The notes beneath the pieces were generated by a model that saw nothing but the letters and a program-made list of their open reading frames with translations, ran no database searches and was not told where the DNA came from. A DNA stretch of 32,745 nucleotides from Rhodothermia bacterium. GTDB taxonomy: Bacteria > Bacteroidota > Rhodothermia > Rhodothermales > UBA2364. A program made the position numbers and the translations under genes. Position 1 is the first letter of the stretch; each line of letters starts with the position of its first letter. Below are positions 14,411 through 16,269 of this stretch, piece by piece. The stretch is taken from assembly GCA_017303715.1 (NCBI GenBank), contig JAFLBZ010000047.1, positions 1 to 32,745 on the forward strand, given 5' to 3'.

Positions 14411-14701
14411 TCAGTTCAAGAACAAAAACCGAATGACTTCTCCGCCACGCATCATCGGGGCATATACATTGGGCATCATTTCCGGAAATAGGGCGTATTG
14501 CCGGTAATGGCCGTTACATTGCCAAAACCAACCTTCTTGGACGGCCACTTTCTCCATAATTGCCGAGACCTCGGCTTGTAATGCCCAGTAGCCCTGTACA
14601 CGTAGGTGGTTTTTCACCGCCAAAGTGGTGGTGTTTCCATTTTCCTGCATTAGTTGTATTGCAGCTTTACGAATTGCTGAAACCGTAATTCTTTTGTTCA
14701 T
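14411..14701 (-). CDS. Small protein of unknown function, possibly winged-helix
   Basis: A 96-residue protein starting MNKRITVSAIRKAAIQLMQENG. The pattern is two or three helices (TTTLAVKNHLRVQGYWALQAEVSAIMEKVAVQEG) then a beta-hairpin-like WFWQCNGHYRQYALFP, which would suit a small winged-helix fold. I do not recognise the family. It is downstream of the PARP gene on the same strand, 241 bases away, so cotranscription is possible but not shown. The coding frame is uninterrupted, and the composition resembles the PARP gene more than the lipoprotein array. Confidence 0.6.
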   Translation of the reverse strand: MNKRITVSAIRKAAIQLMQENGNTTTLAVKNHLRVQGYWALQAEVSAIMEKVAVQEGWFWQCNGHYRQYALFPEMMPNVYAPMMRGGEVIRFLFLN

Positions 14702-14942
14702 GGTGTTTGCTGTCTATGAAGGATAAAAGAAACTGCTTGCATGGTTGAGTCGGAAAATTGCGATTCCTTATCGGCAGTACAATTACCCCTATAAGTTTTT
14801 ATATTATAAATATTTAATATAGATAACAATCAAGTCATCCATTTCTATGGAACACTTATTGAGTGCTTGCCCCTCGGTTATAAATCCGTGTGAGATCCAC
14901 TGGCTAAGCTCAATAAGCAATCCCCGAAAAGTTGGGTTAGGG
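14702..14942. other. Intergenic region with a distant inverted repeat
   Basis: CTTATTGAG (14855-14863) and CTCAATAAG (14909-14917) are perfect complements 45 bases apart. The left third is AT-rich and could hold the promoter of the small minus-strand gene. No coding frame of note. Confidence 0.45.
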
Positions 14943-16184
14943 TTAATGGGCCACTTCGATCAAATATTTGATGGTACTTTGTGCCTCGTTATAGACAATA
15001 AACTCGTTGTTCACCAAATCGGCTCCACCCTTTGCAAAAACAGAGTCGTACTGCCGCCGCAACAGCCCCCGCGACTTTAGCTTCTCGGCGTCTAATTTGT
15101 AGCACCAAGGCTTGTGTTGGCGGATGGTAAGTGCGTTTCCGGTATGCACTTCGTATAGGGCCAAGTAACCGCGATCCGCTCTACCGCCTGTCCAAAAAGC
15201 ACCTGATAAAGAGCTGTAATTTAGAGACTTCTGGAAATGATCGGCAAAGTACAACCCATAGCCAAACATCTTACCGGTAATAATGGCATTGGCAGGCCGA
15301 AGTACCAAGCCATTGCCCAAAATCGAGAGCCAATTTTCGTTACGGCTACCATGCCAGAGCAGCTCTGTTTTTTGGTTTGTGGCTGTATGTAAGTGGTTTT
15401 GGAAGCGCCGTCGGTGCTGGCGGTGGGTTACTTCAAACACCCGCACCATTTTTTTGGCGTGGTGTTGCATTTTCGCACGGATTTGGGCCATAACGGTTGC
15501 ATCTTCAACCACCCGAATTTCCAAACCCAATTTTTCACATACATTCACTGGCTTGGCATCGGATGTATTATGGTTCATTTGTACTTGGCCTACCATAACG
15601 TCTAAAGTGGCTTGTTCCATCGCCAGCATATTGCGAATGACGGCCTCGTCGGAGTCGGGTTGTACCAAGTGGTTCCGAACATTGGTCATGCGTCGTGGGA
15701 TTATAGCATAGAGGCGAATCAGTTGGCGGTTTAGGGCCTCCCTTGTTTGCCCCAATTCGTAGTCCGTTATCACTTCATTAATCAATCCTTGGGCTTCGGC
15801 AATTTGCGCAGCCGTCACTTCGTCTGACCCAACCAAATAATTGGCCAAAACGGAACTTCGGGCATAGCCCTGCAAACGGTTCATTAAGCCATCTATCCAA
15901 ACATTTCCGGTCGTGCAAAGATTGATTTCTTCTCTTTTATCTGCAAATAAATAGCTCACATCGGTATATCCTTTTCGGATTTTTTCGCGGTATTTTTTTT
16001 CCCAATGGGCCAAATCGTAGGTGGCGGTCGCGGCACGGCTCCCCACACGGCCATACTCCACCGAGAACGTCCCATCTGAAAGGGCATTCATGTTATAAAA
16101 TTTATTGTTATTGGCATCCGAGACCATGATGAGTCGTGCGCGGCGCTGTTGTGTGGGAGCGGTTTGCAAAGTAGCTGTGTTCAT
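14943..16184 (-). CDS. Bacterial poly(ADP-ribose) polymerase with WGR and PARP catalytic domains
   Basis: The start at 16184 (MNTATLQTAP) is preferred over ATG 16244, which adds 20 unrelated residues; length 413. Residues 20-85 form a WGR-type domain (KFYNMNALSDGTF, SVEYGRVGSR; the motif reads YGRVG). Residues ~100-200 are helical and resemble the PARP regulatory domain (LINEVITDYE, LIRLYAIIPRRM). Residues 240-413 are the catalytic domain, with the H-Y-E triad: His278 in LLWHGSR, Tyr312 in GYGLYFAD and Glu394 in NNEFIVYNEAQ. The triad predicts NAD-dependent poly- or oligo-ADP-ribosylation, with WGR sensing nucleic acid. Cytoplasmic, no signal peptide. PARPs of this build are uncommon in bacteria and are probably acquired. 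Confidence 0.9.
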   Translation of the reverse strand: MNTATLQTAPTQQRRARLIMVSDANNNKFYNMNALSDGTFSVEYGRVGSRAATATYDLAHWEKKYREKIRKGYTDVSYLFADKREEINLCTTGNVWIDGLMNRLQGYARSSVLANYLVGSDEVTAAQIAEAQGLINEVITDYELGQTREALNRQLIRLYAIIPRRMTNVRNHLVQPDSDEAVIRNMLAMEQATLDVMVGQVQMNHNTSDAKPVNVCEKLGLEIRVVEDATVMAQIRAKMQHHAKKMVRVFEVTHRQHRRRFQNHLHTATNQKTELLWHGSRNENWLSILGNGLVLRPANAIITGKMFGYGLYFADHFQKSLNYSSLSGAFWTGGRADRGYLALYEVHTGNALTIRQHKPWCYKLDAEKLKSRGLLRRQYDSVFAKGGADLVNNEFIVYNEAQSTIKYLIEVAH

Positions 16185-16233
16185 GAGTTCCAAGTATTTT
16201 TGCTGATGTACCCTGTATTGATTCCATAATACA

Positions 16234-16269
16234 AAAAGAGGCATGACAACATTGTGTCACACCTCTTTT
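16234..16269 (-). terminator. Intrinsic terminator of nirK-nirV-sco
   Basis: AAAAGAGG (16234-16241) pairs with CCTCTTTT (16262-16269). Inside, TGACA pairs with TGTCA around a six-base loop, with a CA/CA internal mismatch. On the minus strand the hairpin is followed by five T. It lies 30 bases after the SCO gene stop and ahead of the PARP start, so it separates the two units. Confidence 0.88.

What the first reader, a model, noticed from the sequence alone, without database searches (positions are those of the whole stretch)
14943..16184. Bacterial PARP with intact H-Y-E triad
WGR, regulatory-like helices and a PARP catalytic domain with His278, Tyr312 and Glu394 predict real poly(ADP-ribose) synthesis, which is rare in bacteria. 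It lies between the effector array and the denitrification genes, with its own unit and a small unknown gene downstream. A role in DNA damage response or defence is possible. No ADP-ribose glycohydrolase is in the window.
Basis: partly seen in the sequence, partly recalled or inferred. Interest (0 to 1): 0.6.

Follow-up and report, generated by a model that had tools for sequence, protein, structure and literature searches.

The report
Bacterial PARP with conserved DNA-binding partner
This bacterium carries a poly(ADP-ribose) polymerase like the enzyme human cells use to sense broken DNA, and the overlooked small gene beside it is a predicted DNA-binding protein that keeps company with this enzyme across many Bacteroidota and large phages, which suggests a two-part bacterial and viral DNA-damage module.

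Summary
The PARP is real. Window 14943-16184 (-) encodes WGR, helical and ADP-ribosyltransferase domains with His, Tyr and Glu in place. All three are invariant in 74 aligned homologues. It belongs to the known bacterial PARPs (WGR-PARP, 'Clade 1'), so the enzyme itself is a new member of a known kind.

What is new is the small downstream gene (14411-14701 -). It is under purifying selection (dN/dS 0.06-0.08), is predicted to be a winged-helix (wHTH) protein, matches no Pfam, NCBIfam or PADLOC family, and is tied to this PARP. It sits beside the PARP in 5/5 PARP-bearing genomes of the order and in two Saprospiraceae. Searches with the wHTH alone found the PARP beside it in 26 of 29 informative loci of a Cytophagales-like family and in 10/10 virus contigs. 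Cellulophaga phage phi4:1 has the order PARP, wHTH, DNA ligase.

The chromosomal Bacteroidota PARPs form one clade nested among phage PARPs. DNA ligase genes cluster near phage PARPs (10/18 groups within 3 kb; 1.2 expected).

Best reading: a strand-break-activated PARP working with a co-expressed DNA-binding partner in DNA-damage response or repair. Enzyme activity, DNA dependence and the wHTH's role are inferred, not shown.

The parts
14943..16184 (-). PARP gene, WGR-helical-ART, from the ATG at 16184 (an ORF from 16244 gives 433 aa)
   Evidence: Pfam PARP/WGR, PDB and fold matches, 43-73% identity to cellular Bacteroidota relatives
15960..16142 (-). WGR domain (YGR signature, G65 R66 invariant)
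   Evidence: Pfam WGR; invariant columns
15573..15902 (-). helical domain (auto-inhibitory-type helices) before the catalytic domain
   Evidence: AlphaFold2 helices 115-224; no Pfam PARP_reg match
14949..15527 (-). ART catalytic domain; H298 15351-15353, Y332 15249-15251, E414 15003-15005; M326 and K339 align with PARP1 M890 and K903
14411..14701 (-). 96-aa winged-helix protein, conserved partner of the PARP
   Evidence: A2/A3/A5 alignments, AlphaFold2 pLDDT 88, fold matches, dN/dS 0.06-0.08, linkage
14702..14942 (-). PARP-wHTH spacer; 241 nt here against about 20 nt or less in the two congeners; holds a 9-nt inverted repeat 14855-14863/14909-14917 and an AT-rich palindrome
16234..16269 (-). 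terminator hairpin with T-run after sco1, upstream of the PARP start; conserved in the genus
   Evidence: alignment, fold -22.4 kcal/mol, z -4.2

Best explanation
A two-gene DNA-damage module. The first gene makes a poly(ADP-ribose) polymerase. Its WGR domain recognises strand breaks, which releases the auto-inhibition imposed by the helical domain, so that the H-Y-E catalytic domain uses NAD+ to ADP-ribosylate itself and proteins at the break. The second, co-expressed gene makes a small winged-helix DNA-binding protein that works with the enzyme. Most likely it is an accessory subunit that brings the PARP to DNA or is modified by it; second, it may be the module's own repressor. Removal of the mark would fall to a macrodomain protein elsewhere in the genome. 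Shown here by computation: the domains, the catalytic residues, the partner's fold and the gene linkage. Inferred: break activation, chain synthesis, and physical or regulatory contact between the two proteins.
For: WGR-helical-ART order and fold match DNA-bound PARP1/2. H, Y, E, the WGR glycine-arginine and K339 are invariant in 74 homologues. Partner linkage in cells: 5/5 in the order, Saprospiraceae L011 and L013, 26/29 in a search that used only the wHTH. In phages: wHTH-only searches of IMG/VR returned 10 contigs and all 10 encode the PARP. The wHTH is the most recurrent neighbour of the PARP, 18 of 48 PARP groups, mostly directly downstream. Function by association: DNA ligase within 3 kb of the phage PARP in 10 of 18 groups against 1.2 expected; macrodomain directly upstream in the Clostridia-phage branch; macrodomain, NADAR and a nicotinate/nicotinamide phosphoribosyltransferase gene upstream of PARP-wHTH in L139. 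Both genes are under purifying selection. Related WGR-PARPs of Herpetosiphon and C. difficile are active enzymes (PMC4245714, PMC5966428).
Against: No activity was measured. In this genome the two genes are 241 nt apart, not overlapping. Some wHTH genes have no PARP nearby (L162, L175, L177), and two sit beside a PARP that has lost the helical domain and the catalytic Tyr (L165, L169), so the wHTH may have a role that does not need an active PARP. L012 and the Clostridia contigs have the PARP without the wHTH. No PARG was found, which argues against heavy PAR turnover. Ligase clustering is in phages, not at this locus.
Confidence: 0.55

Rival explanations
1. The wHTH is only the transcriptional repressor of the PARP operon. 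It binds the promoter and lets the PARP be made on a signal, for example DNA damage or NAD+ change, and takes no part in the enzyme reaction.
For: Typical small wHTH of the repressor kind: near folds include Fur, PadR, MecI/BlaI and ArsR-like repressors. The Q-x-x-V-S helix resembles that of ArgR, which gives weak hits. It survives beside a decayed PARP.
Against: The gene is downstream of the PARP, and the upstream region shared in the genus is accounted for mainly by the sco1 terminator. Many phage versions carry additional domains on either side, more than a simple repressor needs.
Confidence: 0.25
2. A defence or toxin-antitoxin module: the PARP depletes NAD+ or modifies DNA or proteins on phage infection, and the wHTH neutralises it.
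For: Two-gene layout, ART fold, and losses in which the wHTH survives the PARP (L162) fit an antitoxin. ADP-ribosylation defence systems such as DarTG are known, and this genome has one.
Against: No PADLOC match. The PARP is at the same place in the congeners and the cellular Bacteroidota enzymes form one clade, and phages carry the same pair, often beside ligase genes, which is odd for an anti-phage toxin. The PARP is kept without the wHTH in L012. The helical domain suggests regulation by DNA, not by an antitoxin.
Confidence: 0.12
3. A phage-derived gene pair carried by chance, with no conserved role in the host.
For: Cellular PARPs of Bacteroidota form one clade inside the diversity of phage PARPs.
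Against: dN/dS of 0.06-0.15 for both genes, intact triad, conservation in several families of cells. No phage genes were recognised beside the gene in the window.
Confidence: 0.08

Closest known systems
Bacterial WGR-PARPs, Clade 1 (Cytophagales/Clostridiales type; PMC5966428) and Herpetosiphon aurantiacus PARP (PMC4245714)
   Same: WGR then helical region then PARP catalytic domain; H-Y-E; PARP_reg not recognised by Pfam although helices are predicted; sporadic distribution
   Different: Plasmid-borne PARPs of other phyla (Variovorax, Vibrio, Pseudomonas, Clade 2 type) are only about 25-29% identical. The conserved wHTH partner is not mentioned in the parts of these papers read here.
Eukaryotic PARP2/PARP1 (ARTD1/2)
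   Same: WGR, helical and ART domains; catalytic residues and the M890/K903 equivalents
   Different: About 20-24% identity in the structural alignment; no zinc fingers, BRCT or basic N-terminus. A separate wHTH protein is encoded next door.
Phage PARPs (XacN1 BBA65562 in PMC7824862; Cellulophaga phi4:1 gp031)
   Same: Same domain order; phi4:1 type and many IMG/VR phages carry the wHTH gene downstream
   Different: 30-43% identity to the window PARP. XacN1, RAS14 and FBKp34 PARPs fall with Clade 2 and lack the wHTH.
DarTG toxin-antitoxin
   Same: Two-gene ADP-ribosylation system, present elsewhere in this genome
   Different: DarT is a different ART family and its partner is a macrodomain, not a wHTH.

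Membership tests
PARP / ARTD, bacterial Clade 1 | PARP catalytic (ART) domain | tested here: met
   PF00644 1.2e-28; Foldseek PARP1 1e-22
PARP / ARTD, bacterial Clade 1 | H-Y-E triad | tested here: met
   H298, Y332, E414 aligned and invariant in 74 homologues
PARP / ARTD, bacterial Clade 1 | WGR domain | tested here: met
   PF05406 1.6e-5, above the curated cut-off; YGR form
PARP / ARTD, bacterial Clade 1 | helical (PARP_reg) domain | tested here: inconclusive
   No Pfam match at E<=1; long helices predicted in the right place
PARP / ARTD, bacterial Clade 1 | DNA-dependent synthesis of ADP-ribose chains | not testable with these tools
   needs enzyme assay
Complete PAR cycle (writer plus PARG-type eraser) | bacterial PARG (PF10021) in the genome | tested here: not met
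   absent in G000, G106, G107 while the model rings in G021 of the same order
Complete PAR cycle (writer plus PARG-type eraser) | ARH3-type hydrolase (PF03747) | tested here: not met
   no match, controls ring
Complete PAR cycle (writer plus PARG-type eraser) | MacroD-like macrodomain | tested here: met
   L006 ORF, PF01661 2.7e-34
Winged-helix DNA-binding proteins (the partner) | three helices followed by a beta hairpin | tested here: met
   AlphaFold2 pLDDT 88, H7-21 H26-35 H42-56 E59-62 E67-70; VIA Z 7-8 to many wHTH proteins
Winged-helix DNA-binding proteins (the partner) | membership of a named wHTH family | tested here: inconclusive
   no Pfam, NCBIfam or PADLOC match; related to phrog_33401 of unknown function through the phi4:1 protein
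Anti-phage defence systems | match to a catalogued system | tested here: not met
   PADLOC none for PARP or wHTH; library dated 2023

The most novel reading that the evidence does not exclude
The wHTH family is a dedicated PARP cofactor: a separate DNA-binding or activating subunit that does for prokaryotic and phage PARPs what zinc fingers or HPF1 do for eukaryotic PARPs. The pair is a phage-borne strand-break response exchanged with Bacteroidota chromosomes, often next to the phage ligase that would seal the break.
Probability: 0.35. Interest if true: 0.75.

Novelty: new variant of a known kind. Interest (0 to 1): 0.55.

Why it matters
What PARPs do in bacteria is unknown: only two had been shown active as of the papers read, and no partner protein is described in the held literature that was searched. 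A conserved second gene gives a direct handle on that question. It can be deleted, purified and tested for effects on PARP activity. Finding the same pair in isolated phages of Cellulophaga, beside a DNA ligase gene, makes the test possible in a phage-host system and ties bacterial PARPs to phage DNA metabolism. The placement of cellular Bacteroidota PARPs inside phage diversity also bears on how PARPs moved between genomes.

Tried and rejected
Genome-contig search with the single protein: no relatives; with the alignment: 7 loci. Foldseek of the wHTH gives no match at E<=0.001, only generic wHTH matches, so no specific family can be named. Chance ORF: rejected for the PARP (E-values, fold) and for the small gene (dN/dS 0.06-0.08, conserved in cells and phages). 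Start at 16244: rejected, it lies in the sco1 terminator. Prophage context of the window: no phage genes recognised among the neighbours tested. WGR-like N-terminus on the phage ligases in L090/L095/L097: suspected by eye, not supported by Pfam. Ligase clustering: p about 3e-8 assumes independent groups, which 70% clusters are not, so it is indicative only. Literature searches found no description of the partner, but only open PMC papers are held. The consensus scan for sigma-70 promoters and terminators gave no excess over shuffles.

Full report
Observation. The ORF at 14943-16244 (-) carries a PARP catalytic domain (E=1.2e-28) and a WGR domain (E=1.6e-5). Solved PARP1 and PARP2 are its best PDB relatives. 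The AlphaFold2 model (69 sequences, pLDDT 89) shows WGR at about 35-95, helices at 115-224 and the ART fold at 240-432, and Foldseek's best matches are human PARP1 bound to a DNA break. They are invariant in 74 homologues, as are G65-R66 of the WGR and K339, the equivalent of PARP1 K903; M326 sits at the place of M890, and both are residues that PARP1 needs for chain elongation (own knowledge, not tested). The start at 16184 is right: the ATG at 16244 lies within a strong hairpin with a T-run that ends sco1 and is shared by both congeners.

The partner. Directly downstream lies a 96-aa gene, 14411-14701 (-). It is conserved beside the PARP in all five genomes of the order that have a PARP, at 36-75% identity. 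Codon comparison within the genus gives dN/dS of 0.06-0.08 (PARP 0.09-0.15), although dS is near saturation for the window pairs. Its model (pLDDT 88) is a winged helix, H-H-H-beta-beta. No Pfam, NCBIfam or PADLOC family matches.

Linkage tested both ways. Starting from the PARP: Saprospiraceae L011 and L013 carry the wHTH downstream; Cytophagales L012 does not; L010 ends at the contig edge; the Clostridia contigs L014 and L015 do not and have a macrodomain-like gene upstream instead. Starting from the wHTH alone: in 222 genomes of family f48 (Spirosomaceae-like, judging by the PARP-bearing genera listed in PMC4245714; inferred), 48 genomes match. Of 30 loci fetched, 26 have the PARP directly upstream on the same strand; one is cut by the contig end, and three lack it. 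Two of the 26 PARPs are decayed, without the helical domain and with Tyr changed to His. In IMG/VR, wHTH-only searches gave 10 contigs, and all 10 encode the PARP, nearly all directly upstream; five of the ten had already been met in the PARP search, and one is a near copy.

Phages. At least 108 IMG/VR contigs encode relatives, the 80 kept being 30-43% identical and many of them 100-480 kb long, as do 15 phage records. Among 48 PARP groups (70% identity), the wHTH family is the commonest neighbour (18 groups), mostly within 30 nt downstream. In isolated Cellulophaga phage phi4:1 the order is PARP (gp031), wHTH (gp030), DNA ligase (gp029). Phage wHTH proteins are longer, with extra sequence before or after the wHTH; the C-terminal part of two (L098, L101) matches phrog_2267. 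Of 50 PARP-bearing phage records, 14 have the wHTH anywhere, all in the Bacteroidota-like and phi4:1-like branches and none in the Clostridia-phage branch. ATP-dependent ligase genes lie within 3 kb of the PARP in 10 of 18 groups, 1.2 expected if placed at random; groups are not fully independent. In L139 macrodomain, NADAR and a phosphoribosyltransferase of NAD+ salvage lie upstream of PARP-wHTH.

Phylogeny. A careful tree separates Clade 1 from Clade 2 enzymes and PARP1/2 (100/99). Bacteroidota cellular PARPs are together (89/39), next to phage L042 (89/90) and nested among phage PARPs. With ten f48 enzymes added and four long branches removed, the cellular clade has 97% SH-aLRT support. So one chromosomal lineage sits inside phage diversity; the direction of transfer is not resolved.

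Erasers. The genome has no PF10021 PARG (the model rings in G021 of the same order) and no ARH-type hydrolase. It has a MacroD-like protein (L006) and a DarTG pair (L007). PF05028-type PARG was not searched.

Mechanism. Steps shown by computation: domain order, active site, fold, partner's fold, linkage, selection. Steps inferred: break recognition by WGR, release of the helical domain, PAR synthesis, and cooperation with the wHTH. The accessory-subunit role is preferred over simple repression because the wHTH is downstream, carries extra domains in phages, and the PARP has no recognised DNA-binding domain other than WGR. The retention of wHTH beside dead or lost PARPs keeps the repressor reading alive.

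Known or new. Bacterial WGR-PARPs of this type are described (PMC4245714, PMC5966428), and so are jumbo-phage PARPs (PMC7824862, PMC9503650). In the passages and searches available I found no mention of the wHTH partner. The PARP alone is ordinary for its kind; the PARP-wHTH pair is the finding.

Noticed in passing
L021/L165 (G338) and L169 (G707): Decayed PARPs that lost the helical domain and the catalytic Tyr (now His) but stay beside an intact wHTH gene; L162 (G444) has the wHTH without any PARP.
   Followed up: partly
L175 and L177: Loci with two wHTH paralogues about 1 kb apart and no PARP within the 3.2 kb held; L174 and L178 have a PARP followed by two wHTH genes.
   Followed up: no
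L014:5534-7188 and L015:4660-7215, and many IMG/VR loci (L036, L040, L041, L051 and others): A small macrodomain-like gene lies directly or closely upstream of the PARP in the Clostridia-phage branch, a likely writer-eraser pair; the R. bromii contig L015 looks like a phage genome (DNA polymerase III alpha, ribonucleotide reductase and primase-like genes around it, by eye).
   Followed up: partly
L007 (G000 contig C4, 823-2484): DarT (PF14487 2e-41) followed by a DarG-type macrodomain protein: a DarTG system elsewhere in the window's genome.
   Followed up: yes
window 14702-14942: The PARP-wHTH spacer is about 220 nt longer than in the congeners, very AT-rich in part, with an inverted repeat CTTATTGAG/CTCAATAAG; possibly a small insertion that gave the wHTH its own promoter.
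   Followed up: partly
L039:8585-9406: A 482-kb phage contig has a wHTH fused to an acyl-carrier-protein-like domain (phrog_5934) near an enlarged PARP.
   Followed up: no
L090, L095, L097, L099, L101 ligase ORFs upstream or downstream of the PARP: The N-terminal 90 residues of these phage ATP-dependent ligases look WGR-like by eye (Pfam does not score it).
   Followed up: partly
   Followed up: no
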